This document shows positions 2,645-20,466 of a stretch of DNA of 20,466 bases, piece after piece. Source of the DNA: Myxococcales bacterium (lineage in GTDB: Bacteria; Myxococcota; Myxococcia; Myxococcales; Myxococcaceae); the NCBI GenBank assembly GCA_003153055.1, contig PMBV01000398.1:46744-67209 (forward strand), read 5' to 3'. The translations under genes and the position numbers were made by a program. The notes under the pieces were generated by a model. That model saw only the letters and a list, made by a program, of their open reading frames with translations, did no database searches and was not told where the DNA came from. Numbering within the stretch: position 1 is the stretch's first letter; each line of letters opens with the position of its first letter.

Positions 2645-2661
2645 GGGTGGGTATCTCCAGA

Positions 2662-4161
2662 TCAGAACCCGAGCTCGTCGGGCGTGCTCGGCTCGCTCAC
2701 CAGCGCGCGAGACGGTTTTCTGGGAGAACGCTCCGGCGCCTTGGTGGCCCTCGCCCGGGAGGCTGATGGCGCGGCCAGGGGCACCTCGGCCTCGGGCTCG
2801 GGAGGTTGTGCTTCGAGGTGGGCTTCAGGTCTTTTCGGCGACGGGGGAGTGGGCGCTGGCGTGACCGCCACAGCCGGCTGAGGCTCCGGTGGAGGCGGGG
2901 TCGCAACCAGGGTGGCCTGCGGCGGCGTGCTCGGGGTCCGCATCGAGCGCACCGCCAGCGCACCCAGGAGCATCGAGATGGCCGATCCGATCATCACCGC
3001 CCAAAGCCAGCGGGCCCGGAGCGCGCGGCGCGGGGGCTTACCGACTGCTGCCTCCGACAGGGGCTCCGGTGTCGGTGGCTCGCCCCGCCCCTGAGTGGCC
3101 ACCAATGGCCGGGCCTCACCCGAGGACGACGAGGAGGAGGCGCTGCCGTAGGAGGCGTGGGGAATCACCAGTGCGCGGTATTGGCCGGTGGGGGTGCTCT
3201 TCACCTCCAGCAGCTGATCAGCGATGGTGCGTTGGAGCTTCTCTCGATCAACCGCGAAGGCGCCGGCGACGAGGGCGCCGAGATCGCGTCGGCTCGCGCT
3301 GAGCCCAGCGGATCTGATGTGCCCCTCGAGCCCCTCGAGGAGCGCCCCGGCCGAGGGACAACGCCGCTCGAGCTCGGGCTCCAGTGCCCAGTTGCACAGG
3401 TCTATCAGCTCTGACCCGACGCCGGCGGGCGGTCCCACCAACCGCGGGACACCGCCTTCCCGCAGGCGCAGAAGCAGGCTCAGCTCGGTCTCCCCCTGCC
3501 ACAAGCGACGCCCGGTGATGAGCTCGAACAGCATCACCCCCGCGGCGAAGACGTCGGCCCGCTGGTCCACCGCCTCTCCCATGGCTTGCTCGGGCGGCAT
3601 GTACGCCACCTTGCCCTTGAACAGCCCTCCGCGAGTCACCAGCGCGGAGTCGAGGGCCTTGGCGACCCCGAAGTCGACGATCTTGCAATGCCCCTCGTAG
3701 GTCACCAGGACGTTCTGCGGAGAGAGATCGCGGTGCACCAGCCCGAGCGATGCGCCGTCGAAGCCCGTGAGTGCATGGGCGTAGCGCAGCCCGTCGAGCA
3801 CCAGCGACATCACGTGGAGACCGATGGGGAGGGGGATCGACACCCGCTTTCGCAGCTTGTGCAGGGCAGGCCCGTCGATGAACTCCATCGCGATGAAGTA
3901 CTGATCCTCCTCGGTGCCTACCTCGTACGTCTGGACCACGTTGTGGTGGTTGAGGCGCGCCGCCAACCTGGCCTCCTCGAGGAACATGTCGAGCCCCTGC
4001 TGCTCGCCGAAGTCGCGGAGGAGCTTGAGCACCGAGAGCTTGTTGAACCCGCCCGGGCCGCCGGACACCGCCAGGTACACGTCGGCCATGCCGCCTCGGC
4101 CAAGCTCGGCGAGAAGGCGGTACTTCCCCAGGACGTTGCTGCGGCGAGAGTGGTTTTCCAT
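2662..4161 (-). CDS. membrane-anchored Ser/Thr protein kinase
   Basis: Hanks-type (PknB-like) Ser/Thr kinase of 499 residues. The catalytic domain spans about 12-280: glycine loop GRGG at 21-24, ATP-binding Lys46 (SVLKLL), helix-C Glu63 (LEEAR), HRDLSPQN at 143-150 with catalytic Asp145, DFG at 163-165, and MPPEQ in place of APE at 188-192. All catalytic residues are present, so it should be active and of the RD class. Residues 281-380 form a cytoplasmic linker with a Ser run (SSSSSS) and Pro stretches. One transmembrane helix lies at about 385-405 after an RRALRAR charge patch, followed by a Pro/Ala/Glu-rich, apparently disordered exterior tail of about 95 residues with no sensor domain. It is the first gene of the operon with the TPR-PEGA and PstS-like genes and is transcribed away from maiA across a 243-nt gap. 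No strong ribosome-binding site is visible before the ATG. Confidence 0.93.
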   Translation of the reverse strand: MENHSRRSNVLGKYRLLAELGRGGMADVYLAVSGGPGGFNKLSVLKLLRDFGEQQGLDMFLEEARLAARLNHHNVVQTYEVGTEEDQYFIAMEFIDGPALHKLRKRVSIPLPIGLHVMSLVLDGLRYAHALTGFDGASLGLVHRDLSPQNVLVTYEGHCKIVDFGVAKALDSALVTRGGLFKGKVAYMPPEQAMGEAVDQRADVFAAGVMLFELITGRRLWQGETELSLLLRLREGGVPRLVGPPAGVGSELIDLCNWALEPELERRCPSAGALLEGLEGHIRSAGLSASRRDLGALVAGAFAVDREKLQRTIADQLLEVKSTPTGQYRALVIPHASYGSASSSSSSGEARPLVATQGRGEPPTPEPLSEAAVGKPPRRALRARWLWAVMIGSAISMLLGALAVRSMRTPSTPPQATLVATPPPPEPQPAVAVTPAPTPPSPKRPEAHLEAQPPEPEAEVPLAAPSASRARATKAPERSPRKPSRALVSEPSTPDELGF

Positions 4162-5089: not shown

Positions 5090-7012
5090 GTGTTCGCGGT
5101 GGTGCCTTTGGGAGTCGAGGGCGGTGAGGTGCGCTTTCCCGTGGTTGGGTTGGCGATTCTCGTCACCTGCGCCGTCATCTTCGGCGCGACGTGGCTGGCC
5201 GAGCCGGACCCACTGGGGACCGCGCCCGAGCAGACGGAGCCGGTGTTCGAGTACTGGTCGAAGCGCCCGTACCTCGAGCTTCCAGAGGCCTTCACTCGGC
5301 GCTTCGTTGGCACGCCTGGGCGCGCCGCCATGGAGCGTGTGAGGAGCCACTGGTCGAAGGAGTCGCAGCCGCCCGACGCCCGCCTGGTCATCGAGGAGCA
5401 GAACGAGCTCGACGTCATGGCCACCGAGGCCGTCGCCGCCGCGCCCGAGCCGCTGTTTCGCCGCCTCGCCTTGAACCCGTCGCGAGGGTGGGCCCAGCCG
5501 GGCTGGGTGACGCACCTCTTCGTGCACGCCGGGTGGATGCACCTCATCGGCAACATGCTCTTCCTCTACGCCGTCTCGCTCTTGCTCGAGGACGCCTGGG
5601 GGAGGGGCCGCTTCCTCGCCTTCTACCTCGTGGGTGGGCTCGTCTCGGGAGCCGCCGAGTTCCTCATGAACCGCGGCTCCACCATGGTGCTGGTGGGCGC
5701 GTCGGGGGCCGTGTCCGCGTGCATCGGCGCGGCCATGGTGCGCTTCGCCCGGCGGCGCATGCGCGTGGGGTACCTGCTCTTCCTCGGCATCCTCTTTCGC
5801 ACCGGCACCTTCTCGATGCCCGTCTGGCTGTGGGGCGTCTTCAAGGCAGGCAACGAGGTGATGGACTTGGCCACCGGCAGCGCTCCCGGCGTCGCGGTGC
5901 TGGCTCACGTGGTGGGCATCGGCTTCGGCGTTGGGGTGGCGCTGGTGATGCGGCTGGCGGGCCTGGACAAGGAGTTGGTGGCCACCGACGAGGCCAGCTC
6001 GAGCTTGGTGATGTCCTACTCCAGCGACGTCGAGGAGGCTCAGCGGCTCCTCGCCCAGGGAGACCTCGTCGGCGCCCGCCGCTACTTCCAGCAGGCGCGC
6101 GCCACCTCAGGCACCGATGTCGATGCCCTCTGGGGTCTCTTCGAGCTCGAGGTGCGCGAGCGTCGACCGGCCGCCGCGGGCGCCCATCTGGAGCGCATCG
6201 TCCAGGTGCTGCTCAAACAAGAACAGACTGAGCGTGCTCGTGACTTCTTCGTCTCCGGGTGGAGGTCCGTGAGACCTTCGGACCTCAGGCCTGGGCTGGC
6301 GCTGGTGGCAGCCAAGGCGCTGGGCCCGTTGCTTCCCTCCGATGTCGCCCTCGAGGTGTGGACCCGCGCCAGCGAGGTGGGCGGCGTCTCCTCCGCGCTT
6401 CCAACCATGAAGGCCCTCGAGCTCGCAGTGAGCGCCGAGGACGCCCCCCTCGCTCGCCGCCTGCTCCATCAGCTCGAAGGGCTGGGCCCGCTCGCTCCTG
6501 AGGTGGAGGGGCGCAAGGACGCCGCCCGTGCCCGGCTGGAACAGGTGGTCCACGAAGAGCCTGACCTCCGGGCGCTCCACCACCAGCCTCCGCTGGCCAC
6601 CCCGCGGCAACGCTTCGAGGCCTCGGTCACCAGCGCCCGACGAGAAGGGTTGAGCCTCGCGCTGCGCTCGGGTGCGTCGCGGGTGCTCCCGCTCAGCGAA
6701 GTCAAAGCCGTGGCTGCCGGCTATGTCGCAGCGGCCGAGCAGCGCCGGGTGTTGGTCGTCTTCCTGGTGCTCGACTGGGGAGGCGCCGGGCGGCCGGCGG
6801 TGCTCGTCAAGCTCGACAGCGACACCGGTGGCGTCGATCGCCTGCGCCCCGGGGTTACCGCCAGAGCGGCCTGGCTGCAATTTCTCCCCTGGCTGGTCGA
6901 CCAGGCTCGCTCGGTGGCCTTGCCCAGCCGCGAGCACCTGGCCACGGGGGAGCTGCCCTTCTGCGCCGACGTCAGCACCCTCGAAGAGGCCCTGTTTTCG
7001 CCCCTCTCCTGA
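5090..7012 (+). CDS. rhomboid intramembrane serine protease with C-terminal TPR extension
   Basis: Inner-membrane protein of 640 residues starting with GTG preceded by AAAGGGGGAGG (5077-5087). TM1 is at about 16-37, followed by a roughly 100-residue soluble insertion (38-138) that is unusually long for this position. The rhomboid core spans about 139-290: HAGWMHLIGN (His146, His151, Asn155), GASG with nucleophile Ser205, and AHVVGIGFG with catalytic His273. The Ser-His dyad and HxxxN element are all present, so it should be a working protease rather than an inactive pseudoprotease. Residues 313-480 are helical TPR-like repeats (EEAQRLLAQGDLVGARRYFQ and following), probably cytoplasmic. Residues 500-640 form another soluble module with a VLVVFLVLDW strand that I do not recognise. 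It lies 40 nt after maiA and 109 nt before the sigma gene, on the same strand. The substrate is unknown. Confidence 0.88.
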   Translation: MFAVVPLGVEGGEVRFPVVGLAILVTCAVIFGATWLAEPDPLGTAPEQTEPVFEYWSKRPYLELPEAFTRRFVGTPGRAAMERVRSHWSKESQPPDARLVIEEQNELDVMATEAVAAAPEPLFRRLALNPSRGWAQPGWVTHLFVHAGWMHLIGNMLFLYAVSLLLEDAWGRGRFLAFYLVGGLVSGAAEFLMNRGSTMVLVGASGAVSACIGAAMVRFARRRMRVGYLLFLGILFRTGTFSMPVWLWGVFKAGNEVMDLATGSAPGVAVLAHVVGIGFGVGVALVMRLAGLDKELVATDEASSSLVMSYSSDVEEAQRLLAQGDLVGARRYFQQARATSGTDVDALWGLFELEVRERRPAAAGAHLERIVQVLLKQEQTERARDFFVSGWRSVRPSDLRPGLALVAAKALGPLLPSDVALEVWTRASEVGGVSSALPTMKALELAVSAEDAPLARRLLHQLEGLGPLAPEVEGRKDAARARLEQVVHEEPDLRALHHQPPLATPRQRFEASVTSARREGLSLALRSGASRVLPLSEVKAVAAGYVAAAEQRRVLVVFLVLDWGGAGRPAVLVKLDSDTGGVDRLRPGVTARAAWLQFLPWLVDQARSVALPSREHLATGELPFCADVSTLEEALFSPLS

Positions 7013-7067: not shown

Positions 7068-7121
7068 CTAGGCGGCGACTACTTGTCTGCTCCCTTCCTT
7101 CGACTTTCCGTGGGGCGTGAC

Positions 7122-7970
7122 ATGGGACGAACCGATGCAACTTTCTTCGAGCGCGAGTGCGCGCGCATCGCGTCGCAGCCGCCCTTGAGCGAAGAGGAGG
7201 AACGGGGGTTGGTGCTCCGCTGGCACGAGGAGAATGACCGCTCGGCTGCCCACGCGCTGGTGAGGGCCCACCTGCCGGTGGTGCTGCACCTGGCGAATCG
7301 CTACCGCGGCTACGGCGTGGCGCGCGAGGAGCTGGTGGCCGAGGGCAACGTGGGACTCCTCAGGGCGGTGGAAAAGTTCGAGCTCCGCGGCGTCCGCTTC
7401 AAGACGTACGCCGGCTACTGGGTGCGGGCCCACATGCTGTCCTACGTGCTGCGCGCCAACAGCATCGTCGCCCGGGCCACTGGCGCCGTGGGGGCCCACT
7501 TCTTCTTCAAGCTCCGCGCCGCGAGGGCGAGGGCGGAGGCGCTCCTCGGGCCACGCAATGACGGCGTCGACGAGCTGCTGGCGCGGCAGTTCGACGTGTC
7601 GGTGGAGCAGATTCGCGCCCACTCGGCGCGGCTGGCCATGGCCGACGTCTCGCTCGACGCGAAGGTGTCCGACGACGGAGACACCACCGCACTGGACCTC
7701 TTGGCCAGCGAGTGGATGTCGCCCGAGGAGGAGGCCTCGGTCGCCCAGCGCGATGAGCTGGTGCACCAGGTGGTGGAGCGGGTGGGGCGTGGCTTCGATG
7801 CCCGCGAGCGAGCGCTCGTCAGTCAGCGGCTGTTGGCCGACGAGAGCCTCACTCTGGCCGAGCTGGGCACCCGCTTTCGCCTGTCTCGCGAACGGCTCCG
7901 GCAACTCGAGATGGGAGTCAAGGCGCGGCTGCGGCGGGCCCTCGAGGTGGACCTCCCCGGCCTCGAATAG
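7122..7970 (+). CDS. RpoH-like alternative sigma factor
   Basis: Sigma-70 family factor of 282 residues, close to the length of E. coli sigma-32. Region 2 spans about 41-111, with the core-binding and -10 recognition part NVGLLRAVEKFELRGVRFKT (76-95) followed by YAGYWVRAHMLSYVL. Between regions 2 and 3 lies AHFFFKLRAARAR (125-137), resembling the RpoH box (KLFFNLR in E. coli) that marks the heat-shock sigma group. Region 4 at 243-272 carries a helix-turn-helix, LTLAELGTRFRLSRERLRQL. Region 1.1 is absent, as expected for this group. The ATG at 7122 has GGGG 6 nt upstream. The frame stays open to a TTG at 7083, but those residues add nothing family-like. Myxobacteria encode several RpoH-like factors (for example SigB and SigC of Myxococcus) used in development or stress; which paralogue this is cannot be decided. 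It converges on the lipoprotein gene. Confidence 0.9.
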   Translation: MGRTDATFFERECARIASQPPLSEEEERGLVLRWHEENDRSAAHALVRAHLPVVLHLANRYRGYGVAREELVAEGNVGLLRAVEKFELRGVRFKTYAGYWVRAHMLSYVLRANSIVARATGAVGAHFFFKLRAARARAEALLGPRNDGVDELLARQFDVSVEQIRAHSARLAMADVSLDAKVSDDGDTTALDLLASEWMSPEEEASVAQRDELVHQVVERVGRGFDARERALVSQRLLADESLTLAELGTRFRLSRERLRQLEMGVKARLRRALEVDLPGLE

Positions 7971-7991
7971 CCTGGCGGCTCAGCGCCGAGG
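7971..7991. terminator. small hairpin between convergent stop codons
   Basis: CCTGGCG (7971-7977) can pair with CGCC and AGG (7984-7987, 7989-7991) around a GCTCAG loop, with one bulged G. The structure begins directly after the sigma-factor stop and overlaps the end of the convergent lipoprotein gene. There is no T-run on either side, so it is at most a weak bidirectional terminator. Confidence 0.22.
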
Positions 7992-8582
7992 GCCCGTCAC
8001 GTCGAAGGACACGCTGCACCGGTGGCAGGGACAGCCGGCGTCGGCCGCCGCTCCGTCGAGGACCCCCGCGTCGTCCACCGCGAGCGTGGCCACGAGGGTC
8101 CCGCAGGCCAGCATCGCGTCGACGCCGTACTCGGTGAGGCCGGGCCCCGAGATGCCCGCGTCGGGGTCGGGCGCCGGTACGCCACCGTCGAGCGGGTTGG
8201 GCTGGCAAGCGGAGCCCACGCTTTGGGCCTGAGAGCGGCTGAGCAGCGCCAGCTCGATGGTCTCCACCACGTGGGTCCTGCAGGCGCCGGCGTCGGTGGT
8301 GAATACCCGGGGGGCCGAGGCGGTCGAGGTGAAGACGTGGCCATCCCACGAGGCGTCGCGGGAGATGCCCGCGAGCGTCATCCACGCTCCGGTGCCGTCG
8401 ACGTTCCTCGACAGCGTCACCTCGAAGCTCATGGCGGAGCCGCCGTCGAGGAGGCAGCCGGGGTCCGCCGAGGCCGGCACGGCGGTGAGGGTGAAGGTTC
8501 CCAGGACTTCGTCTCCCGGCACCTTGGCGGTCGTGCAGGCCAACAGCACGCTGGTCACCCCGAGCAGGGTCCTCAAGCGCAT
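7980..8582 (-). CDS. small lipoprotein coupled to the giant TPR gene
   Basis: Protein of 200 residues opening MRLRTLLGVTSVLLAC, a clean lipoprotein signal with lipobox LLAC and lipidated Cys16. The mature part has no domain I recognise: a beta-like segment GTFTLTAVPASADPGC, several Cys (including CPCHRC near the C-terminus), and Asp/Ala/Gly-rich stretches. Its paired Cys suggest disulfides in the periplasm or at the outer membrane. The frame extends 46 codons upstream, but that part lies inside the giant TPR gene. The ATG at 8582 has AGGAGG at 8587-8592, and its A is also the last base of the upstream gene's TGA (TGATG), so re-initiation coupling is expected. The outer-membrane or inner-membrane destination cannot be told; residue +2 is Thr, not Asp. 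Confidence 0.82.
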   Translation of the reverse strand: MRLRTLLGVTSVLLACTTAKVPGDEVLGTFTLTAVPASADPGCLLDGGSAMSFEVTLSRNVDGTGAWMTLAGISRDASWDGHVFTSTASAPRVFTTDAGACRTHVVETIELALLSRSQAQSVGSACQPNPLDGGVPAPDPDAGISGPGLTEYGVDAMLACGTLVATLAVDDAGVLDGAAADAGCPCHRCSVSFDVTGPRR

Positions 8583-11500
8583 CAGCCCTCCTGGAGGCGC
8601 GCCAGGGCGACCGACGTCAGCACGCGGAAGCTCGGGCTGGTCGTGAGCACCCGGGCCACGTTCACGGCTCGTGGGTCGCTCCCGCGCACCGAGCGGTCGA
8701 GGTGGGCCACCACCCGGCACGCCGCCAGCGACGCCGGGGCCGCGCGGAAGGCCTTCAGCGTCGCCTCGTCGAAGCCCTCCACCGCGCCGGTGCTCTGGAG
8801 CTGGACACCGGCCGACCCCAACTCGAGCGCCAGCGCCAGGAGGAACGAGAGCTCGGGCGGGCCGAACACCGACAACGCCCCGACGCCCAGCACCAGGCGA
8901 TTGTTTTCGGCGAGGAAGGCCTCCACGCCGCCCGCCGGGTTCAGCGCCACCGACACGTGGCTGGCTCCCAGGCGTTGGAGAATCTCGCCCAAGGTCGAGG
9001 TGAGGCGGGGCATGGCCGCGTCGGTGAGCAGCACGCAGCCTGGTGGGGGCGGCGTCGACGATGGCTCGATGCGTGCCAGGGGTACCAGAGGCACCGACGG
9101 AGCCGGCCCCGACGGCACGGTGAGGGCGGCCCCGAAGCCATCAGCCATCACCGCGCCCGTCGCGTCACCGCTCAGGCGCAGGGCCTCGGCGAAGAGCGTC
9201 CACCCGTGGGCGTCGACCGGCTGAGCGCCGAGCAGGTTGACGAAGGCGCGTGCCGCCACCGCCGCGCCTTGTTGGGTCGGCGCCAGGCGCTCGGCCACCA
9301 GACGCAGCGTGCGAGGCCCCAGTGGCCCCTCGGCCATCAGGCGCTCAGAGAGCCGCGCCGCGAAGGGCACCAGCTCGGCGTCGAGGTAGCCCTCCAGCAC
9401 GGCTTCGAGCTCGGCCCGGGTGGTGGCCGCTCGCTCCAACAGCTCGAGGGATTCGGCCCGTCGACCCAGCGCCTCGGCCAGGCGCGCCCGCCGACGGAGC
9501 AGCATCGGCTCGTCACCCATCTGGGCCAGGAGCTCGGAGGCCTCCTCGAGGCGATCCAACCCCTCGTAGGCGTCGGCCAGTGACTCGCGCAGCGGGGCCA
9601 CGGCCTCTTCGCCAGCCAGCGCGCGCAGCTTCTCCACCGCCGCGACGTAGCGGTCTGCTGGGCCGTCGCTGAAGAGCCGCACCAGCGCCTTGACCGCCTC
9701 GAGCTGTGTCGAGTCGTCGACCAGCGCCTGCTCGAAGGCCGCCCGGGCGGCTGCCTGGTTGTCGAGGCCTCGGAGCTGCAGCGTGCCCTGCTCCACGCGG
9801 AGCGCTGCCCGCGCCACTGGGTCGGCCTCCGTCTCGATGAGCGCTCCCAGGCTCGCCACCGCCGCCGCCGGGTGCCCGAGCTCGGTCTCGATCGTGGCGA
9901 GGGAGCGCAGGGCCACGTTTCGGTGCTCGGGCAACAGGTGGGCGGCGCGGGCCAAGATGGCGGGCTGCTGCTCCCGTGGCAGCGCGTCGAGGTGGGCCAG
10001 CAGCACCGCCAGCACCGCGGGGCGCTCGGTCGACGCGAGCGAGGCGGTCTCACCCGCCTGGGCCAGCGCTTCGGCTGCGTCGGCCCGGTCGTGGTCGAGG
10101 GCCAGCTCACGCCACAGCGCCACCGCGACCAGCGGAGTGGTGCTCGAGGCCACCTGGGCGAGCTGGCTCAGGCCCTCGACGTCTCCCGCCGCGCGGAGGA
10201 GCTCGGCGTAGCGGCTGGCCTCGGTCGAGCTGGGGGCGGCGAAGGAGAGCTCCTTCAGGGCCTCGAGGATGCTCGGTCTCTCGTCAGCGGCGTCAGCCAG
10301 CTCGAGGGCCCGCTGGGCGCGGCCTCCCTCGAGCGCGGCGCGGAAGCCCACCTCGAAGGCTCGGCGAGGGGCACCCAGCTCGAGGAAGCGGGTGGCGAAG
10401 GCCTCGACCGTCCGGTGGCCGCGCGCTTCGACGAAGGCCCGCTCCAGCACGGCCTTGGCCCGCCCTGGCTCTCCGGCGGCGTCCCACTCGTCGACCGAGG
10501 AGAAGAGGGCATCGGCACGCTCCGCGCCCTCGGAGAGCTCGGCCAGGAGCCCCAGCGCCCGGGCGACCTCGTCATGCTGGCCCTGCGCGCGGCCGAGGTC
10601 GGCGAGGAGCACCAGCCCCTCGCGCGTCGGGTGGGCGGCCAGCGCCTGGTGGGCGGCGGCAAGGGCCTTGTCGAGGCGGCCGGACCGCTGCCAGAGGCGA
10701 GCGACGTCGAGGAAACGAGCCGCTCGCCCCTCGGCCGGCTCGAGCTCGCCGAGGGCGACCTGCAGCTCTACCAGCGCCTCGAGGTCGTTGGCGGCGCGGG
10801 CGAGTCTCTCGAGGGCCGCCAGCGCCTGGGCATAGCCGGCTCCCGAGGGCCCGTGCTGCCGCAGCGGCTCGAGGGCTCCCCGCGCCTCGGCCCACTCACC
10901 CCGGGCCTCCAGCGACGCGGCGAGCTCGAGCGTGAAGGCGCTGCTCCTGAGCTCGTCGGCGTGGGCTGCCAGGCGGCGAAGGAGCGACTCCACCTGGGGC
11001 ACGTCGCCGCGCCCACGGGCCTCGTTGAGCGCGTTGGACGCGGCGTCGAGGTCTTCTGGGTCGACCCGGCTCGCCTCGAGGAAGAGCTCGTAGGCGCGGG
11101 CCTCGTCGTGCAGCTCGGTCTGGGCCAGGCGCGCGGCGGCGGCGAGGGCCTTCGAGGCCTGGCGACCTCCCGTGGCCGCGGCGTGGCGCTCGTGCAAGGC
11201 GACGGCCTCACCGACTCGGCCCTGGCGCGAGAGGGCAAGGAGCCCCTTCTCGTACAGGCCTTCTTCTCCGGGGTGCCGCTCGAGGAGCCAGGCGAGGGCG
11301 TCCCACGCGCGCTCGGGCTCCCCGTGGAACGAGAGGGCCCGGCGAAAAAGCGCGTCGGCCTCGGCGCCAGTGCCTGCCTTGGCCGCCTTCAACGTGGTGC
11401 GGTACTGGCCGTCGGCGTCGTCGAGGCGCGCGTAGGCTTCGGAGAGGGCCGTCAGCACGGCGTTGCCCTTGGGCCCGTCGGGGTCGCTGGTGACGACGGC

Positions 11501-14500
11501 CTCGAAGGCGTCGACGGCGTCGTGCCAGGCCTGGCTCTCCATGGCCGCCTGACCGAGGCGAGCCCAGGCGGTGAGCCGGGTGGCGAGGGGGAGGCTGTCT
11601 CCTCCCAGTTGCACCAGTCGGCGATCGAAGGGCTGGGAGGCACGGGGACCACCGCCCTGCGCGGCGAGGTTGGCGCGCTCGGCCAGGGCACCGAGGTCGT
11701 CGGTCACCAGCACCAGGTAGTCGTCCCACGCGGCCGCGGCGAGGAGCGGGTCGCCTCGAGACGAGAGGACCTCGGCGCGCTGCTTGAGGAGCGTCGAGGC
11801 CTCGCCCGGCACGGCGCCGGCGCGGAGGGCCAGGAGCTCGGCGAAGCGACGGGGGTCATCTTTGGCGCGCTCGGTGAGGCGCTCGAAGGCCTCGCGGTTG
11901 CTCGCGCTCGCCTCGAAGGCCTGGTCCTCGCAGAGCTGCGCCCGCTCGGAGGCGCCAGCCCGTTGGAAGGCGTCGGCGGCCTGGAGCCAGGTGCCGGCTG
12001 CCTCGCTCTCGCTCTGGGCCCCGGCGCGACGAGAGTAGAGCGCGGCCAGCGAGAGGTGCTCGCCCAGCTCTTCGAGCCACGCGACGTGGCGCTCGAAGCT
12101 GGAATGGAAGGGGTCGTGCTCGAGGAGCAGCGCGTCGAAGTCGGCCGCGTCTTGGCGTCGGCCGAGCTCGGCCAGCAGGTTGGCCACGCGGGTGGTGAGC
12201 GAGAGGTCGTCGGGGTCGGCGGCGCGAGCGGCGAGGAGCGCAGCGGCGGCCTCGTGAGGGCGGCCGGCCCGCTCGTGGTACAGCGTGGCGGCGTTGAGGA
12301 GCAGCTCGGCCTTGGCCTTGGGCTCGGTGGCCCGCTGGGCAGCCTCCTCGTACCAAGCGGCCACGTCGCCTACGCGGTCTTGGCGCTCGAACAGTGCCAG
12401 CAGCATCGTCTGGGCGCGCGGGTGGGCCGCGTCGAGCTCGAGGGCCTGGCGGAGGGCGGCCTCGGCCTGCTCCGGTGCCAGCATCGGGGCTTGCGCCAGC
12501 TCGGCGGCGTCGCTCGGGCCTTCGGCGGGGAGCCCGAGGTGCAGGCGGGCCAGCGCGACGAAGGCGTCGGCCTTCTCGTGCCCTTCGAGCAACCCCAGCC
12601 GCCGCTCGGTCCAGTCGAGCTCCGCTTCACGGTCGGTGCGCCGGCGAGCGAGCTCGACGCCCTCGGTCGCCGTCTCGAGCAAGGGCCGCAGCTCCCAGGC
12701 GTGCTCGAGGGCGGCCGCGGCGCTGGCGAGGTCGAGCTTGGCGTCACGGAGCAGGTGGGCCGCGCGCACCAGGAGGCCGGCTGCCTCGGTCGAGCGCTCC
12801 TCTTCTTCGGCCAGCTCGGCCATCACGGCGATGGTCCGGAGGGCGTCGTCGATGCGCCCGGCGGCCTCGGCGAGGCGAGACTCCTCGTCCCACGCCTCGA
12901 GGGCCGAGGCCACCTCGCCCAGGGTGACGGACAACTGGGCCACCTGATGGAGCTCGCTCATCAGCTCGGCGGTGCGGTCGGCGGCGCGCAGCACGGTGAC
13001 GAGCTCGTGGCGAATGGCGAGCGGCGCGTCGCTCGCGGCGGCGGCCAGGCGGTAGAGGCGAACGGTGAGCTCGAGCTCCTCGGGTCGTCGCCCGGCGTCG
13101 CGCGCGAGCCCCACCAGCCGCTCGGTGGCCCGAGGGGAGGGGCCCAGCGACTGGAAGTGTCGGGCGAGCAGCTCGATGGCGGCGCGGGGGTCGACCTCTC
13201 CCTTGAGCGCGGCGAGGCGCTCCACCGCCTGGGTATTGAGGGGCCGCTCTTCCATCAACCGGGTGAGCGTGGCTTCGGCGAGTGGGCGGTCATTCACCTC
13301 GAGGGCGAGGTCCGCCAGGCGCAGGTACACCCGCTCGGCCTCGTCGGGCGCGTCATCGAAGCGGGCCGCCTCGGCGACCTGGCGCTGCAGCGGGAGCGCC
13401 TCACGGATGGCCCCGTGAAGGTAGAGCGCATCGGCCAGACGCTCGAGGGCGACCCCGGTCGCGGGTTGGAGCTCGTGCGCGGCGCGGAGGAGCCGCAGCT
13501 CCTTGGCCGAGTCGTGGGCGCGCTGAGCCAACCCCGCCGCCTCGCGGAGCGCCGCTGCTGCCTCGCTGGGCCCGAGGTGCTTGGCCGCGTCTTCCAACAG
13601 CGCTCCGGCGTCGGCCAGCTCGCCCCGGCCGAGGAGAATGGCCGCCAGTCGTCGCCGAGCCCCCACGTTGGTCGTGTCGAGGGCCACCACACGGCGGAGC
13701 GCCGATTCGCCGGGGCCGCTCTCGTTCAGGCGTTCGAAGTAGAGGCTGGCGAGCTCCTCGTAGAGCGGCACCGCCTCGCTCTTGGGCGCCTGGGCCGCGG
13801 CGGTGGCCAGCACCTCGGCCAGGCCTTCCCAATCGGTGAGAGACCGCAGCACCCGGGTGAGGCCGGCGAAGGCGATGGGGCTGCGAGGGGCCAGCGCCAG
13901 CGCGCCGCTGAACGCCTGAACGGCCTCGTCTTTCGCGTCGCGGGCCTCGAGCAGGTTCGCACGCTCGAGCAGCGCGTCGACCCTGCGGGGCACGGGGCCA
14001 CTCGTGGAGGCTTCGAGGAGCGCCTGCTCGGCCCGTCGCAGGTCGGCGCCGGCGCGGGCAGCCCGGGCAACGCCGTACCAGGCCTCCTGCCGCTCCGCTG
14101 GCGGGAGCTTCAGGTTGGCCAGCGCCTCGTAGGCGTTGCGAGCCCGCGCCACGTCGTCGCTCGCCAGCCGAGCCGCGGCCAGGGCGAAGAGGCGAGGGGC
14201 GGCCTGCTGGAGGATGAGCGTGTCGTGGCCCGCGCGCTCCAGGGCCACCCGCCACGTCTCGAGCTCGCCGATCTCGTCCTTGGCCTCCCGGGCGTACTCG
14301 GCGAGGGCGCGGAGCAGTGGCAGCGGCCGGGGCGAGAGCTCAGCGGCCTCGAACAGGTCGGCCCGGGCAGCCGTGGCGTCACCCAACGAGCGGTGGAGCT
14401 CGGCGCGGTGGGTGAGCAGCTCGGAGCGGACCTCGCCCTTGGCGGTGGCCACCAGCCGAGACACCAAGTCGAGCCGCTCGATGAGGTGGGCGTCGTCGGC

Positions 14501-17500
14501 GGGGAGCAGCGCCAGGAGTCGTGACGCGGCCCACTCGTCGACGGGCGCCTCGGAGAGGATGGAGCGGAGGGCCTCCACCGCGGCGGCGCTTCGGCCGAGG
14601 GCCAGCGCTCCTTCGGCGTATTCTCGGCGCGCGGCCAGTCTCGCCTCGCCGGCCAGCTGGGGCCACAGCTCGCCCAAGAGGTCCACCAGGGGCTCCATGG
14701 CCCCGGCCTTCCGCAGCAGCCCGGCGAGGTCGAGCTGGGCGTCGAGGTCTCCTGGCCTCTGGGCGGCGTACCTCGACAGGTAGCGGCGGGCCGAGTCGTA
14801 CTGTCCAGAGCGCTGGGCCGCGCTGGCGGCGCGCTTGGTGAGGGCGGCCACGTCGAGGGTGAAGGGCGTCACGGCGTCGTCGTCGCGCCACTCGGTGAGC
14901 AGCACCGCCTCGAAGTCGGCGAGCGCCTCGTGAGGGTTGGAGGCCTCGGCCAGCTCGCCCCGCCTGAGACGCGCCGGGAGGTAGCCCTCGTCTTGTTCGA
15001 GGGCCTTGGTGAGGAGGCCCGGCTCCTTGGGGGTACCTTGGTTCAGTCTGGCGGCGGCGAAGTACCAGCGCGCGGCGTCACGCCCGGTGGCGAGGCTGGC
15101 GCGGCGGGCGTAGAGGCGGGCGGCCTCGAGGGGCTCTCCGCGCCCGAGCTCGAGGGTGGCCATGGCCTCGAGGGCTTGGCCAGCGTGGTCTCCGGTGGGT
15201 GAGGCTTCGAGCGCGGCCGACAGGCGCAGCATCGCGCCGGCCGAGTCCTTGGCCTCGATGGCGGCCAGGGCCGACTTGAAGAAGAGCGGCGCGGCGTCTT
15301 GGGCGCGGCCCACCTGCACCAGCGCCTGGGCTCGGGCGGCCCACAGCTCGATGAGCGGCTGGGTGTAGTGGCCGTCGGTGTAGAGCACCTCGAGGCGCCG
15401 GGCGAGCTCGTCGTCGAGCCTGCGGAGCGGGAAGGCGACGGCGTAGTTTTCCCTCGCGGCGTCCTTGTCACCCAAGAGCTCGCAGGCTCGGCCCAGGCGG
15501 GCGCGCACCTCGGCTACCTTCTCGGGCGGCGCGTGAGGCGGCAGCATGGCCAGCACGTCTTCGAGGGCGCGGCGGGCGTTGAGCGGGCGTTCGACCCTGA
15601 GCGAGAGGGTGGCGAGCTCGAGGAGTGTGTTGGGCTCGGGGAAGAGTCGGGTGGCCTTCTCGAGGGCCACCATGGCTTCACCAGCGCGGCCCAGGCGGGT
15701 GTCGAGCACCTGAGACAGCTCGCGGAGCGCGGCGGCGGCGAGGCGCTTGTCCTGGAGTTGCTCGGCGACCCGGGCCCGCTGCTCCAACGCCCAGCACAAA
15801 CCAGCCATGTCGGCGCGGCGGCGCTCGAGGGCGGTGAGCTCGCCCAGCATCGGCAAGTCATCGGGCTCGACGCGGAGCACTTCACGGTAGGCGAAGGCGG
15901 CGAGCTCGAGGTCAAACGACAGGTCTCGCGCGGCGACGGCGAGGCGACGGTAGTGGCGCACCCGCTCCTTGACGTCGTCGGCGAGGAGCGCGAGCGCCTT
16001 GAGGCAGCGGCACAGCTGGCCACCGTCGCGGCGGCTCTCGGCGAGGGCGAGCAACCCCTCGAGGGCAGGGCGGCACTTGGGGTCGGCCTCCAGCGCTTGT
16101 GAGAGGAGCCGCTCGGCCTTGTCGGGCTGATTGAGGCGGCCGCGGTAGAGCTCTCCGGCCTCGGCCCAGAGGGCGGCGCGCTTGGGCACGTCGTCGATGA
16201 TGGCGGCGGACTTCTCGCAGGCCTGCGCCAGCTCCTCGGCTTTCCCCGAGGCACGGTAGAAGGGGAGCAGCTCGTCGAGGGCGGCGGTGTCCTTGGGGTC
16301 GAGGAGGAGCGCAGCCTCGAGGTGCTCCCGGGCGCGGGTCGGCTCGCCCAGCCGCGTCTTGAGGAGCCGCGCCAGGGCATGGTGTGAGGCGTGGGCGGCC
16401 TTGAGGATGTCGTCGGTGCGTGGTGCGGGCCCGGCGAGCTCGATGGCCTGCTGGTAGCCGGCGACGGCCTCTTGCACCTTGCCCAGGCTGTCGGCGACTC
16501 GGGCCGCGAGGTAGAGCGGTTCGGGCTCTCCGGGCAAGAGGCTGGCGGCCTCGCGGAACCGGAGCAGCGCGTTCTCGGGTTGCTTGAGGCCCGTCTCCCA
16601 GACGAGGCCGGCCATGAGGTTGGCGCGGCCGATGCGGTCGACCTCGTGGCGGGCCATGGCCACGTCGCGGAGGCGATCCAGCGCCTTGATGGCCCGGAGC
16701 CACTCGCCGCCTCGGTAGCAGAGCTGGCCCAACTGGAGGAGCGCCTCGGGGTGGTCTGGCGCGAGCCTGAGGGCCGCCTCGCAGTGCAGCCGGGCGCCGG
16801 CGAGGTCGTCCTCGGTCTCGGCGCAGAGGCGGGCGAGGTGCACGTGGGCGTCGGCGGCGTCGGCGGCATCGCGGGCCAGGGCGGCGAGGCGTCGGTAGGC
16901 GCGAATGGCGCCGGCGCGGTCCTTCGCTTGGTCCGAGGCGCGGGCCAACGCTTTGAGGGACGGGAGGTGGTCAGGCTTGAGACCGAGGAGCTCGTGGAGG
17001 GCTTTGACGGCGAGCTGCGGGGCGTGGTCTCGGGAGGCGCGAGCGGCGGCCTCGGCGGCGAAGAAGGCCCCGGCGTCTTCCTGGAAGCGGCGGGAGAGGG
17101 CCGAGAGGGCGAGGTAGCGCTCGGAGGCGCGGGCGAATTCGCCTCGGCGCTCGCGCACCACGCCCTCGGCCCAGATGGCGGTGGCGCTGCGGTCTCGCCG
17201 TCGGGCCAGGGAGGCGGCGATGTCGAGGACGAGCTCGTGGGCCTGGGGGTCGGCCACCAGGAGCGTCAGGAGTCGCTCGACGGCGAAGGGGTGGGCCTCG
17301 GTGGCGTCACCCAGCTTGAGGTACGCCGCGCGGGCTTCCTGGAGCTTGCCCTCGGCGAGGAGCTCCTCGGCGTCGGCGAAGGCGCGGGCTCCCTCGAGGG
17401 TGAGGAGAAGCTCCTCGTCGGGGACGCCGCTGGGGGGCAGACCGCCGGAGGAGAAGCGGAGGCGCAGGCCCTTGGAGGACACCACCGCCTCGGCCAGGCG

Positions 17501-18112
17501 GGCTTGGTCGAGCGCGGGCATCTTGTAGCCCCGGGCCACCGCGGCCACCTCGACGATGGCGGGGAGGATGCGGGTGGTGAAGCCGCTGACGCCGCGTCGT
17601 TCGACCTCGGGCAGTATGGCCGCCGTCTTGATGGCCTCGGACACGACGGCCCCGATGCGCGAGGCCGGGGTGGGGGAGAAGCCGTAGAGGCGGACGTCGT
17701 AGAGGTAAACGGCCAGGCGCTCGCCGTCGCCGTCGAAGGCCACCTTGAAGGTGATGGGGGTCTTCTCGGGGCCCCGGAGCCAGGCCTGGACCTCGAGGTG
17801 CCCAGGGCGGAAGTGGAGCTTGACGTCGTCGAGCTCGGACACCTTGGGGGCGAGGGCGCGGACCTCGCGCTGAATGATTTCGGCGTCGACCGAGAGCTCG
17901 AGGGTGCCGAAGTCGAGCTTCTTCTTCTGGTACTTGGCCGCACCGCCCGAGAGGTTCAGGGGGAAGGTGATGTCGGGAATCTGGAGCGCGAATTCGGTGA
18001 TGGTCACCCCGGGCTTGAGCTTCAGCTCGGGGAAGCCCACGAAGGCACGACGGTCTACCAGCCTCAGCTCGGGGCCCGGGACTCGCTCGCTCGTCTTCTC
18101 TCGGTCAGCCAT
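8582..18112 (-). CDS. giant TPR-repeat protein (3176 residues)
   Basis: An uninterrupted 9.5-kb gene. Residues 1-70 start MADREKTSERVPGPELRLVD. Residues 70-220 are a beta-rich domain (LELSVDAEIIQREV, LHFRPGHLEVQAWLRG, LAVYLYDVRLYG, GLRLRF) whose pattern recalls tubular lipid-binding domains such as DUF2993/LmeA; this is an impression, not a search result. From about 243 to 2960 the chain is almost entirely TPR-like helix pairs (for example AYQQAIELAGP, ALALAPRSPIAFAGL, AYEALANLKLPPAERQEAW), which at 34 residues each would be about 80 repeats forming a very long superhelix. The last 165 residues form a separate domain with LVLGVGALSVFGPPELSFLL. No signal peptide or membrane helix is seen, so a cytoplasmic scaffold is the simplest reading. 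The frame is open to an ATG at 18337, but that extension crosses a hairpin region and looks non-coding. No strong Shine-Dalgarno precedes 18112, so the start is moderately secure. Confidence 0.88.
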   Translation of the reverse strand: MADREKTSERVPGPELRLVDRRAFVGFPELKLKPGVTITEFALQIPDITFPLNLSGGAAKYQKKKLDFGTLELSVDAEIIQREVRALAPKVSELDDVKLHFRPGHLEVQAWLRGPEKTPITFKVAFDGDGERLAVYLYDVRLYGFSPTPASRIGAVVSEAIKTAAILPEVERRGVSGFTTRILPAIVEVAAVARGYKMPALDQARLAEAVVSSKGLRLRFSSGGLPPSGVPDEELLLTLEGARAFADAEELLAEGKLQEARAAYLKLGDATEAHPFAVERLLTLLVADPQAHELVLDIAASLARRRDRSATAIWAEGVVRERRGEFARASERYLALSALSRRFQEDAGAFFAAEAAARASRDHAPQLAVKALHELLGLKPDHLPSLKALARASDQAKDRAGAIRAYRRLAALARDAADAADAHVHLARLCAETEDDLAGARLHCEAALRLAPDHPEALLQLGQLCYRGGEWLRAIKALDRLRDVAMARHEVDRIGRANLMAGLVWETGLKQPENALLRFREAASLLPGEPEPLYLAARVADSLGKVQEAVAGYQQAIELAGPAPRTDDILKAAHASHHALARLLKTRLGEPTRAREHLEAALLLDPKDTAALDELLPFYRASGKAEELAQACEKSAAIIDDVPKRAALWAEAGELYRGRLNQPDKAERLLSQALEADPKCRPALEGLLALAESRRDGGQLCRCLKALALLADDVKERVRHYRRLAVAARDLSFDLELAAFAYREVLRVEPDDLPMLGELTALERRRADMAGLCWALEQRARVAEQLQDKRLAAAALRELSQVLDTRLGRAGEAMVALEKATRLFPEPNTLLELATLSLRVERPLNARRALEDVLAMLPPHAPPEKVAEVRARLGRACELLGDKDAARENYAVAFPLRRLDDELARRLEVLYTDGHYTQPLIELWAARAQALVQVGRAQDAAPLFFKSALAAIEAKDSAGAMLRLSAALEASPTGDHAGQALEAMATLELGRGEPLEAARLYARRASLATGRDAARWYFAAARLNQGTPKEPGLLTKALEQDEGYLPARLRRGELAEASNPHEALADFEAVLLTEWRDDDAVTPFTLDVAALTKRAASAAQRSGQYDSARRYLSRYAAQRPGDLDAQLDLAGLLRKAGAMEPLVDLLGELWPQLAGEARLAARREYAEGALALGRSAAAVEALRSILSEAPVDEWAASRLLALLPADDAHLIERLDLVSRLVATAKGEVRSELLTHRAELHRSLGDATAARADLFEAAELSPRPLPLLRALAEYAREAKDEIGELETWRVALERAGHDTLILQQAAPRLFALAAARLASDDVARARNAYEALANLKLPPAERQEAWYGVARAARAGADLRRAEQALLEASTSGPVPRRVDALLERANLLEARDAKDEAVQAFSGALALAPRSPIAFAGLTRVLRSLTDWEGLAEVLATAAAQAPKSEAVPLYEELASLYFERLNESGPGESALRRVVALDTTNVGARRRLAAILLGRGELADAGALLEDAAKHLGPSEAAAALREAAGLAQRAHDSAKELRLLRAAHELQPATGVALERLADALYLHGAIREALPLQRQVAEAARFDDAPDEAERVYLRLADLALEVNDRPLAEATLTRLMEERPLNTQAVERLAALKGEVDPRAAIELLARHFQSLGPSPRATERLVGLARDAGRRPEELELTVRLYRLAAAASDAPLAIRHELVTVLRAADRTAELMSELHQVAQLSVTLGEVASALEAWDEESRLAEAAGRIDDALRTIAVMAELAEEEERSTEAAGLLVRAAHLLRDAKLDLASAAAALEHAWELRPLLETATEGVELARRRTDREAELDWTERRLGLLEGHEKADAFVALARLHLGLPAEGPSDAAELAQAPMLAPEQAEAALRQALELDAAHPRAQTMLLALFERQDRVGDVAAWYEEAAQRATEPKAKAELLLNAATLYHERAGRPHEAAAALLAARAADPDDLSLTTRVANLLAELGRRQDAADFDALLLEHDPFHSSFERHVAWLEELGEHLSLAALYSRRAGAQSESEAAGTWLQAADAFQRAGASERAQLCEDQAFEASASNREAFERLTERAKDDPRRFAELLALRAGAVPGEASTLLKQRAEVLSSRGDPLLAAAAWDDYLVLVTDDLGALAERANLAAQGGGPRASQPFDRRLVQLGGDSLPLATRLTAWARLGQAAMESQAWHDAVDAFEAVVTSDPDGPKGNAVLTALSEAYARLDDADGQYRTTLKAAKAGTGAEADALFRRALSFHGEPERAWDALAWLLERHPGEEGLYEKGLLALSRQGRVGEAVALHERHAAATGGRQASKALAAAARLAQTELHDEARAYELFLEASRVDPEDLDAASNALNEARGRGDVPQVESLLRRLAAHADELRSSAFTLELAASLEARGEWAEARGALEPLRQHGPSGAGYAQALAALERLARAANDLEALVELQVALGELEPAEGRAARFLDVARLWQRSGRLDKALAAAHQALAAHPTREGLVLLADLGRAQGQHDEVARALGLLAELSEGAERADALFSSVDEWDAAGEPGRAKAVLERAFVEARGHRTVEAFATRFLELGAPRRAFEVGFRAALEGGRAQRALELADAADERPSILEALKELSFAAPSSTEASRYAELLRAAGDVEGLSQLAQVASSTTPLVAVALWRELALDHDRADAAEALAQAGETASLASTERPAVLAVLLAHLDALPREQQPAILARAAHLLPEHRNVALRSLATIETELGHPAAAVASLGALIETEADPVARAALRVEQGTLQLRGLDNQAAARAAFEQALVDDSTQLEAVKALVRLFSDGPADRYVAAVEKLRALAGEEAVAPLRESLADAYEGLDRLEEASELLAQMGDEPMLLRRRARLAEALGRRAESLELLERAATTRAELEAVLEGYLDAELVPFAARLSERLMAEGPLGPRTLRLVAERLAPTQQGAAVAARAFVNLLGAQPVDAHGWTLFAEALRLSGDATGAVMADGFGAALTVPSGPAPSVPLVPLARIEPSSTPPPPGCVLLTDAAMPRLTSTLGEILQRLGASHVSVALNPAGGVEAFLAENNRLVLGVGALSVFGPPELSFLLALALELGSAGVQLQSTGAVEGFDEATLKAFRAAPASLAACRVVAHLDRSVRGSDPRAVNVARVLTTSPSFRVLTSVALARLQEG
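8587..8592 (-). promoter_or_regulatory. ribosome-binding site of the lipoprotein gene
   Basis: AGGAGG on the minus strand, 4 nt before the ATG at 8582 and inside the last codons of the giant TPR gene. It fixes the lipoprotein start at the TGATG overlap rather than at the longer open frame. Confidence 0.8.
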
Positions 18113-18594: not shown

Positions 18595-18837
18595 ACCCGA
18601 GACCGGAGTGTGCACACGTGACACGAGGTCCGAGCCCGTTCTCGTGGGCCAGCCCAATCAGCCACTCGACCAGGGGCGAGGTGGGCGAGGGTCCCCCGCA
18701 ATAGTACCAATGGTACCATTCGCACGCGCCTCGCAGCCGATGTAACCATTGGTACTATTGCTGGAGACCTGCCCCCAACTCAGGCCTTCAATCGGGGACC
18801 ATCACCTGCCGTGCCGAGGGGCTGGTCTGACCGCCCC
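18572..18837. repeat. 23-bp outer inverted repeat pair enclosing a structured 266-bp segment
   Basis: Arms at 18572-18594 and 18815-18837 are inverted copies matching at 21 of 23 positions; the core GACCAGCCCCTCG is perfect in the left arm's sense. Inside lie a 7-bp pair GGTCCCC/GGGGACC (18690-18696 with 18794-18800), the 22-bp AT-rich inverted pair at 18698-18761, and a perfect palindrome GTGTGCACAC (18608-18617). The three pairings are nested in compatible order, as in a folded RNA or a small non-autonomous element. No target-site duplication is visible outside the arms. Confidence 0.5.
18698..18761. repeat. AT-rich 22-bp inverted repeat with 20-nt spacer
   Basis: Arms 18698-18719 and 18740-18761 match at 20 of 22 positions, and the outer 15 bases plus one GC pair (CAATAGTACCAATGG against CCATTGGTACTATTG) are perfect. 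The left arm also carries its own 12-bp perfect palindrome AATGGTACCATT (18709-18720). The ACCAATGG/ACCATTGG core recurs three times. Its low GC content stands out in this genome. It could be an operator for a dimeric or ribbon-helix-helix regulator, a recombination site, or the stem of a transcript; no regulator or recombinase gene is adjacent. Confidence 0.7.
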
Positions 18838-19139: not shown

Positions 19140-20237
19140 CTACCAGTCGCCGTGGTGATCGTCGGGCCTGGCCGGCCGATGCCCCCAGTGGCCCGGCCTC
19201 GGCTCGTCGAACTCTCGGTCGCCGTCGTGATCGTCCTCGCAGTCGTGATGAGGAATCGCCGCCGCCAGGGCGTCCAGCACCTCCCCATTGACCTCGCCAT
19301 TCTCCACGAGGTTCGGGGAGGACCACCCTCCGTCCGCCGTCTGGCGAGAGAGGAGGAACTCGAGCGCTCCAGCTCTGGCCCGATGGACCTCGCGGCTGTC
19401 AGGTGACGCCAGCAGTCCCCTCAGCACGAAGGCCGTCGTCTGGAAGTCGCCGTCGGCCCAGGACCCGTCCGTCGCCTGCGCCTGCAGGAGATGTCGGCGA
19501 AGCTCGTCGCGGGAGTGTCTGATGGTCCTGCTCTCGAGCTCGGAGAGCGCCTCCAGGAGCGCGCCCTGGGAGAGGAGCGTGTAGTCGGTTCCCCCCAGGG
19601 GGAGATTCTCCCAGTCCGCTCGTCGGGCGACCACCTCGAGGGCGAGGCTCCGGGCGTAGTCCTCTTGATCGACGGCCAGCGCGACTTCGATCTGCACCGC
19701 GGCATCCCAGCCGGCGAGCGAGAGTCGAGCCAGGTCGTGGTCGGCGAGCGCCGCGCCAGTGGGGAATTGCGCACGGATGTCCTCGAAGTAGGAACGGGCT
19801 CGCGCGGCGAGGGTATGATCGAAGGTGGCCTCGGACAGGTCCGTCAGAAGAAGCAGATCTCCGAAGGACCGCCGGCCGGTCGGATTGGCATCGTACCGGC
19901 TGATGACCTGGGCTGCTGCACAGCTGGCGCCGACGACGGAGGCCCTCTGTCTGGTGACCTTGTAGGCCTCCACCAGCCCGCGCGCCGAGGCGCCTTGCGT
20001 GTTCTGGTAGGCCACACCGGAGCCCACCTCCCACTCCCATGCGCAGAGGTATTGGCCGGCGCCCGTGTCTCCGTTGGTGTAGGAGCCCTCCAGGGAGAGT
20101 TGATGATCAGCGGCGCGGACGATCCCCGCTCTGAGCGCGGATGAGCGCTCTCGCTCGTCGGCGTACGCCACCGGCGACAGCCAGGAGATCGCTGCGGACA
20201 AGACCACGACGGCCGGGATGACGGACTTCGCTCTCAT
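19140..20237 (-). CDS. secreted alpha/alpha-toroid (squalene cyclase/prenyltransferase repeat) protein
   Basis: Protein of 365 residues. The signal peptide (MRAKSVIPAVVVLSAAISWL..., cleavage likely after AYA at 26) exports it. The body is helical with repeats of the squalene-cyclase/prenyltransferase superfamily, which form an alpha-alpha barrel: QW-like motifs QATDGSWADGDFQTTAFVLR (252-271) and SRQTADGGWSS (297-307), each followed by a helix. Known enzymes of the superfamily act on isoprenoids inside cells; an exported version lacking a DDTAE or DxDD motif is more likely a binding or processing protein of unknown substrate. The C-terminal 36 residues (330-365) hold 7 His and 12 Asp/Glu, including an EF-hand-like loop at 334-345. 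The start at 20237 has GGAGGGGG upstream; the frame continues 47 codons further but without a signal-like start. It is a single gene, and no terminator is evident. Confidence 0.8.
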   Translation of the reverse strand: MRAKSVIPAVVVLSAAISWLSPVAYADERERSSALRAGIVRAADHQLSLEGSYTNGDTGAGQYLCAWEWEVGSGVAYQNTQGASARGLVEAYKVTRQRASVVGASCAAAQVISRYDANPTGRRSFGDLLLLTDLSEATFDHTLAARARSYFEDIRAQFPTGAALADHDLARLSLAGWDAAVQIEVALAVDQEDYARSLALEVVARRADWENLPLGGTDYTLLSQGALLEALSELESRTIRHSRDELRRHLLQAQATDGSWADGDFQTTAFVLRGLLASPDSREVHRARAGALEFLLSRQTADGGWSSPNLVENGEVNGEVLDALAAAIPHHDCEDDHDGDREFDEPRPGHWGHRPARPDDHHGDW

Positions 20238-20241
20238 GAAT

Positions 20242-20249
20242 CCCCCTCC
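20242..20249 (-). promoter_or_regulatory. ribosome-binding site of the toroid protein gene
   Basis: GGAGGGGG on the minus strand; the GGAGG core ends 7 nt before the ATG at 20237. It selects the start that yields a signal peptide over the upstream in-frame ATG at 20378. Confidence 0.8.
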
Positions 20250-20466
20250 GTAAGACCCTGCACGCCCTGGAGAACCCAGGCAGGCGGGTCGAAGGCATTG
20301 AAGACCAAGTCGGGACGAAACGGGCGGCCCCGCGTGAGGCAGCGGTCGAACTCTGTGGCAGCCAGCCGACGGAGTCAACGCGCGCAGTGCGCCCCAAACT
20401 CCGCTCTAAGGATTCGGAACTGGCTCGCTGGCCCCTTGCTGAGACGCGGTCGACCGAGGTTGCCGC

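What the first reader, a model, noticed from the sequence alone, without database searches (positions are those of the whole stretch)
8582..18112. A 3176-residue TPR giant flanked by two distinct terminal domains
A single uninterrupted frame encodes roughly 80 predicted TPR-like units between a beta-rich N-terminal domain and a separate C-terminal domain, with no signal peptide or membrane helix. Very long solenoids of this kind would span tens of nanometres and usually organise large assemblies. Its coupling to a lipoprotein gene hints at an envelope-linked machine not described under any name I know.
Basis: partly seen in the sequence, partly recalled or inferred. Interest (0 to 1): 0.7.

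Follow-up and report, generated by a model that had tools for sequence, protein, structure and literature searches.

The report
Giant myxobacterial repeat-protein scaffold plus lipoprotein
One gene encodes a 342-kDa repeat protein with a possibly lipid-binding-like head and a dead-protease-like tail, widespread in one bacterial phylum and often beside its own lipoprotein gene; what it does is unknown.

Summary
Confirmed. On the minus strand, 8582-18112 encodes 3176 aa: a beta-rich head (1-232), a TPR solenoid (about 233-3000) and a C-terminal domain. It belongs to one orthologous group in Myxococcota: a head profile matches strongly in 135 of 195 genomes. In 28 aligned relatives no indel reaches 20 residues; ten other relatives do lose repeats internally, all between residues 2349 and 2916. 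The downstream lipoprotein gene (7980-8582, overlap TGATG) is a recurrent partner: 38 of 50 testable relatives have it downstream, and in 85 of 86 genomes with both on one contig it follows on the same strand about one giant's length away; 35 of the 135 head genomes gave no lipoprotein match. The head resembles TULIP lipid-binding domains by fold only (weak lead). The C-terminal domain is a degenerate M48-peptidase-like domain without HExxH, related through distant orthologues to that of the gliding protein GltI/AgmK. It is not GltI: both occur in the same genomes. The database name 'FliK' got no support. Best reading: a non-enzymatic scaffold coupled to an envelope lipoprotein; partners, compartment and lipid binding are untested.

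The parts
8582..18112 (-). Giant TPR protein, 3176 aa (ATG at 18112-18110, TGA at 8584-8582)
   Evidence: relatives
17417..18112 (-). Head domain, residues 1-232, beta-rich, TULIP-like by fold (lead only)
9119..17416 (-). TPR solenoid, residues 233-2998, about 50 units detected, about 75 by spacing
   Evidence: ends modelled
15263..17416 (-). Most conserved part of the solenoid, residues 233-950 (39% of columns invariant in 29 sequences, against 11% for 951-2998)
9365..11068 (-). Part of the solenoid, residues 2349-2916, in which all internal deletions of 20 or more residues seen in ten shorter relatives lie
8585..9052 (-). C-terminal domain, about residues 3021-3176, degenerate M48-peptidase-like, no HExxH
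   Evidence: AF2; hhalign; motif check
7980..8582 (-). Lipoprotein gene, 200 aa, lipobox LLAC with Cys16; start overlaps the giant's stop by one base (TGATG)

Best explanation
The gene encodes a non-enzymatic scaffold. A head domain, possibly a TULIP-type pocket for a lipid or other hydrophobic ligand, leads into about 75 TPR units of which the first 20 or so are the main conserved binding platform; a dead M48-like domain ends the chain as a docking module of the kind also found on GltI. In the window's family it is made together with one exported lipoprotein and most likely serves a process at the inner face of the envelope in which that lipoprotein takes part on the other side. Shown here: anatomy, usually single copy, near absence of indels in the first 2,350 residues, recurrent operon partner, loss of the protease motif. 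Inferred: lipid binding, docking role, cytoplasmic location, joint function with the lipoprotein.
For: Head profile with best E <= 6.6e-19 in 135 of 195 phylum genomes; with the single sequence, one match per genome in 132 of 133; relatives down to 18% identity in the head alignment. No indel of 20 or more residues in 28 aligned relatives at 44-64% identity. AF2 models of both ends are confident. M48 relation: hhalign scores 37.3 (distant set) and 31.5 (window-type set) against maxima of 12.9 and 12.0 in 40 column-shuffled M48 alignments, and 12.5 and 9.7 against reversed M48; no HExxH in the last 330 aa of 52 of 52. Lipoprotein: 38 of 50 testable relatives, 85 of 86 same-contig genomes on the same strand at +8.0 to +10.8 kb from the head.
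Confidence: 0.4

Rival explanations
1. A GltI-type motor scaffold: the giant is the cytoplasmic organiser of a further Glt/Agl-like surface machine and acts in motility or a related surface process.
For: Same layout (giant TPR array plus degenerate M48-like C-domain); the distant orthologues' C-domain matches GltI's at p 1.9e-17; GltI is one of the Glt gliding proteins (PMC3169522, passages).
Against: The neighbours that I looked at (clusters in 53 loci; printed sequences of six loci; nine proteins by Pfam) show no Glt- or Agl-like genes, but no systematic search for them was made; window-type C-domain against GltI directly is not significant (p 0.092).
Confidence: 0.2
2. A lipid or lipoprotein trafficking factor: the TULIP-like head shuttles a lipid at the inner leaflet and the lipoprotein is its client or acceptor.
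For: Head fold lead; recurrent lipoprotein partner; in one deep relative (L048) an ABC transporter ATPase lies directly upstream (LolD-like by recall).
Against: No profile support for TULIP families; the ABC neighbour is in one locus only; a shuttle does not need 75 repeats.
Confidence: 0.18
3. Co-transcription without joint function: giant, lipoprotein, QueC and M15 peptidase form an old operon kept for expression reasons, and the giant works alone in the cytosol.
For: A QueC-type gene is also found downstream (30 of 53 loci by clustering; Pfam on one member) and has no obvious link; 12 of 50 testable relatives lack the lipoprotein.
Against: In 85 of 86 genomes with both on one contig the lipoprotein follows the giant; the pair stays together where QueC is not seen next to it, as in the window; 35 of the 38 lipoprotein matches start within about 60 nt of the giant's stop.
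Confidence: 0.18
4. Flagellar hook-length control protein FliK, as databases name it.
For: Names given by sources.
Against: No flagellar family at E<=0.001 in Pfam or NCBIfam scans; TPR architecture.
Confidence: 0.01

Closest known systems
GltI/AgmK (MXAN_4863) of the Myxococcus gliding machinery
   Same: Giant TPR array (4132 aa, no signal peptide or membrane domain in Table 1 of PMC3169522, passages), related degenerate C-domain, near-constant frame length
   Different: The two GltI frames examined have no match to the head profile at E<=10; GltI sits beside a zinc-ribbon/GYF protein (L090; GltJ-like by recall); it is a separate gene present in the same genomes (e.g. G141: L090 and L071)
~1,700-aa TPR class with the same C-domain (e.g. 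L130:7430-12670, 1747-aa frame)
   Same: TPR array plus the same C-domain, no HExxH in the one checked
   Different: Half the length; in the one locus viewed no neighbour suggested a partner
BepA (M48 peptidase with TPR)
   Same: Combination of M48 fold and TPR
   Different: BepA is periplasmic and active (PMC7950410 and PMC8423444, start of abstracts in the listing) with the peptidase first and TPR last (recalled); here the M48-like part is last, lacks HExxH and there is no evident export signal
TULIP lipid-binding domains (CETP 2obd)
   Different: No sequence-profile support; known members are mostly secreted or at membrane contact sites (recalled)

Membership tests
TPR solenoid proteins | Tandem ~34-residue helix-turn-helix units detected by TPR profiles over most of the chain | tested here: met
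GltI/AgmK orthologues | Best match to the GltI N-terminal region and location in the glt cluster | tested here: not met
   The GltI query finds separate frames (4087-4142 aa in 18 of 20 genomes); the window-type genes give only weak repeat matches, best listed 6.2e-6; neighbours seen differ
GltI-type C-terminal domain | Homologous C-terminal domain | tested here: met
   By way of intermediates: distant orthologues to GltI p 1.9e-17, window-type to distant orthologues p 2.8e-5, A2 to A3 E 1.3e-10 with repeats included. Direct window-type to GltI p 0.092, not significant
M48 metallopeptidases | Sequence-profile relation to the M48 domain | tested here: met
   p 1.5e-4 (distant set) and 3.5e-4 (window-type); ten unrelated control pairs 0.056-0.85; shuffles and reversal. 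Two GltI C-domains alone against M48 gave p 0.22. hhalign probabilities were only 37-52%
M48 metallopeptidases | HExxH zinc motif (active enzyme) | tested here: not met
   Absent from the last 330 aa of 52 of 52 family members, of two GltI frames and of one 1747-aa frame
M48 metallopeptidases | M48 fold in a structure comparison | tested here: inconclusive
   Foldseek and VIA-align rows for the C-terminal model were filled by TPR matches
TULIP superfamily | Tubular lipid-binding fold | tested here: inconclusive
TULIP superfamily | Profile match to a bacterial TULIP-type family (LmeA, DUF4403; their TULIP nature recalled) | tested here: not met
   Neither family in the Pfam scan of 47 heads at E<=1; DUF4403 hhalign p 0.2
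TULIP superfamily | Bound lipid | not testable with these tools
   needs the purified domain
FliK | Flagellar hook-length control domain | tested here: not met
   No such family at E<=0.001
Bacterial lipoproteins (partner gene) | Short hydrophobic leader and lipobox Cys | tested here: met
   Lipobox Cys invariant in 22 aligned members; these had been picked partly by that motif; 14 further relatives were found by profile

The most novel reading that the evidence does not exclude
Much of a bacterial phylum keeps, besides the Glt gliding scaffold, a second giant solenoid machine: a cytoplasmic scaffold tens of nanometres long with a lipid-gripping TULIP head and a dead-peptidase tail that works across the inner membrane with its own dedicated lipoprotein.
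Probability: 0.24. Interest if true: 0.8.

Novelty: new variant of a known kind. Interest (0 to 1): 0.6.

Why it matters
A 342-kDa protein, usually single-copy, keeps its first 2,350 residues almost free of indels while its sequence drifts to 44% identity, which suggests that the order and number of repeats there matter. Its head was found in strong form in 135 of 195 Myxococcota genomes, yet databases give it an unsupported flagellar name. Its C-domain ties it to the gliding scaffold GltI, so it offers a second case to learn what these giant solenoids and their dead M48-like tails do, and the lipoprotein partner gives an immediate genetic handle in Myxococcus.

Tried and rejected
FliK/hook-length ruler: no domain support. 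GltI orthologue: rejected on N-terminus, separate gene and neighbours seen. Active M48 peptidase: motif absent. LmeA and DUF4403 as sequence relatives of the head: no support. Foldseek and VIA-align with the C-terminal model returned TPR matches, so the C-domain fold itself was not matched to a solved structure; searches of solved-structure sequences gave nothing below E 0.9 for the head and TPR proteins for the distant C-region, apart from a few weak rows. First TPR count with one idealised consensus was weak and was followed by a family profile seeded with 26 of those units. First neighbour clustering found the lipoprotein in only 18 of 53 loci, at least partly because my simple gene caller missed or mis-started short genes; the later profile raised this. 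The one ~1,700-aa locus viewed had no informative neighbours. Literature: open-access searches (listings, plus passages of three papers) showed no paper recognisably on this protein; most subscription papers are not in the library. PMC9120999 calls AgmK a transmembrane protein of 3,812 aa whereas PMC3169522 gives 4132 aa and no membrane domain (passages); not resolved.

Rows dropped: L014 and L057 (contig ends) from the lipoprotein count; L014, L057 and L074 from C-domain sets (L074's giant is split into two frames); L006, L008, L012 and L015 (partial giants) from the gene sets; L083 and L084 from the 28-relative indel count (examined); a wrong seed, L085, from the second lipoprotein profile; M48 pieces under 150 aa. 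Head alignment A1 used 47 of 53 sequences; C-domain alignments A2, A3 and A4 used 25, 19 and 41. In one search, 8 of 144 database proteins under 2800 aa were not examined.
Full report
Observation. The reported frame is real. It lies on the minus strand, 18112 to 8582, 3176 aa with an ATG start. Identity of 28 relatives to the window protein runs from 31% to 82% per 100-residue block along the whole chain, so the entire frame is under selection.

Architecture. AF2 with an alignment of 47 sequences models residues 1-320 at pLDDT 88.8 and pTM 0.86: a mixed beta/alpha head to about residue 225, then helices from 233. AF2 with 41 sequences models residues 2817-3176 at pLDDT 96.8 and pTM 0.90: 11 solenoid helices to residue 2998, a linker, then helix, three strands and further helices. 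Residues 321-2816 were not modelled; there, Pfam TPR models match in most pieces and a profile seeded from the family finds about 50 units per chain against 1-5 in column-shuffled and 10-14 in reversed sequence. Common spacings are 31-45 residues, with many near twice that, so about 75 units are likely. From recalled TPR superhelix geometry (about eight units per 7-nm turn) a regular array would be some 65 nm long.

Family. The homologue search reported 486 proteins and listed 120; 116 of the 120, including the window's own, are 3151-3196 aa. In 195 genomes of the phylum the head sequence alone was found in 133, once per genome in 132. Alignment A1, which includes the first repeats, gave 146 genomes at E<=0.001, of which 11 have a best E of 4e-11 or weaker and are probably repeat-only or fragmentary, leaving 135. 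No match in the rest does not prove absence, as many are drafts. Giant frames in 52 fetched relatives, chosen because they carry the head, run from about 2.7 to 5.8 thousand residues in deeper groups, so repeat number changes between groups. Nearer the window, 28 aligned relatives at 44-64% identity show at most 28 inserted and 32 deleted residues in total and no indel of 20 or more. That is not the whole story: of 144 database proteins kept are 3050-3250 aa, 8 are 2800-3050 and 8 shorter. One of the 2800-3050 group (P0046) only lacks the first 278 residues; the other seven, P0142 (3116 aa), L083 and L084 lack internal stretches, all between residues 2349 and 2916. So the chain before residue 2349 is almost free of indels, while repeats in the poorly conserved late part can be lost. 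GltI behaves alike: 4087-4142-aa frames in 18 of 20 genomes with a close match to its N-terminal 300 aa; the other two frames are 2078 and 918 aa. Conservation is highest in residues 233-950 (39% of columns invariant in 29 sequences), then the head (29%), against 11% for 951-2998 and for the C-domain.

C-terminal domain. Distant orthologues carry a longer version. It matches the C-terminus of GltI at p 1.9e-17 and the window-type version at p 2.8e-5, while window-type against GltI directly is not significant, p 0.092. GltI was identified as L090:5949-18455, a 4169-aa frame followed by a zinc-ribbon/GYF protein, consistent in size and order with gltI-gltJ in PMC3169522 (passages). The distant version matches M48 peptidase profiles at p 1.5e-4 and the window-type at 3.5e-4 (probabilities 52% and 37%); ten unrelated pairs gave p 0.056-0.85. 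Scores of 37.3 and 31.5 compare with maxima of 12.9 and 12.0 in 40 shuffles. In the alignment of the distant set the M48 zinc-motif helix falls on a degenerate helix and the M48 ExxAD region on an RRTADRVALLASGD-like stretch (motif names recalled); the window-type alignment stops just before the zinc motif. HExxH is absent in 52 of 52. Two GltI sequences alone did not match M48 (p 0.22).

Partner gene. The lipoprotein ATG overlaps the giant's TGA by one base. A profile from 25 members (window included), chosen by position, lipobox and a proline-glycine motif, finds the gene downstream on the same strand in 38 of 50 relatives with downstream sequence, 14 of them not used as seeds. In 35 it starts within about 60 nt of the giant's stop, in L013 and L003 about 200 and 390 nt away, and in L074 it follows the second half of a split giant. 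The 12 without it are L049, L050, L053, L054 and L058-L065. Across 195 genomes the family was matched in 110, once each except G074, which has two partial matches on different contigs; five or so of the 110 are weak. Conversely 35 of the 135 head genomes gave no lipoprotein match, G037 among them although its locus L051 has one by the local profile (E 9.7e-10), so some of these are misses. A QueC-type gene follows in 30 of 53 loci and an M15-type peptidase in 16 (Pfam on one member each); neither is next to the lipoprotein in the window, where a sigma-32-like gene faces it.

Mechanism. The evidence fits a non-catalytic scaffold: array of binding surfaces, head that may hold a hydrophobic ligand, dead-enzyme tail as docking module. 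The linkage to an exported lipoprotein suggests an envelope process, but the giant has no evident export signal, so contact would have to go through a membrane partner. I put 0.40 on this reading as a whole; anatomy and gene partnership are well supported, function is inference.

Known or new. The general kind, a giant TPR scaffold with a degenerate M48-like tail, exists in GltI. The head, the lipoprotein partner and the distinct orthologous group are new to me, and the searches of the held library showed no paper on it (calls listed under Tried and rejected). Hence 'new variant of a known kind'.

Noticed in passing
window 7083-7970, +: Sigma-32-like RNA polymerase sigma factor (TIGR02392 202 bits, below its cut-off of 323), convergent with the lipoprotein gene where many relatives have queC.
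   Followed up: no
window 5090-7012, +: Rhomboid-domain protein with a TPR match further along the chain.
   Followed up: no
window 48-4161, -: Ser/Thr kinase, PEGA-domain protein and a protein with a sub-threshold PBP-like match in a row.
   Followed up: no
window 18678-18781: Inverted repeat, two 42-nt arms 81% complementary, upstream of the giant; a 16-base piece of it was not found in the 131 fetched loci.
   Followed up: partly
window 19140-20378, -: 412-aa frame with a weak squalene-hopene-cyclase-like match (E 0.0053, below cut-off).
   Followed up: no
L130:7430-12670 and similar frames: A ~1,700-aa TPR class with the same degenerate M48-like C-domain recurs in many of the Myxococcota genomes listed; no name seen.
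   Followed up: partly
genome G108, contig 9, 80591-81478: A second GltI-like frame of 5294 aa, 47% identical to the GltI N-terminal query.
   Followed up: no
L048:15008-15682 and 15675-17597: ABC transporter ATPase (Pfam) and a permease-like gene (by inspection) directly upstream of the giant in one deep relative.
   Followed up: no
L074:7671-14489 and the frame after it: The giant is split into two frames in this genome (2284 and about 1,000 aa); not examined further.
   Followed up: no
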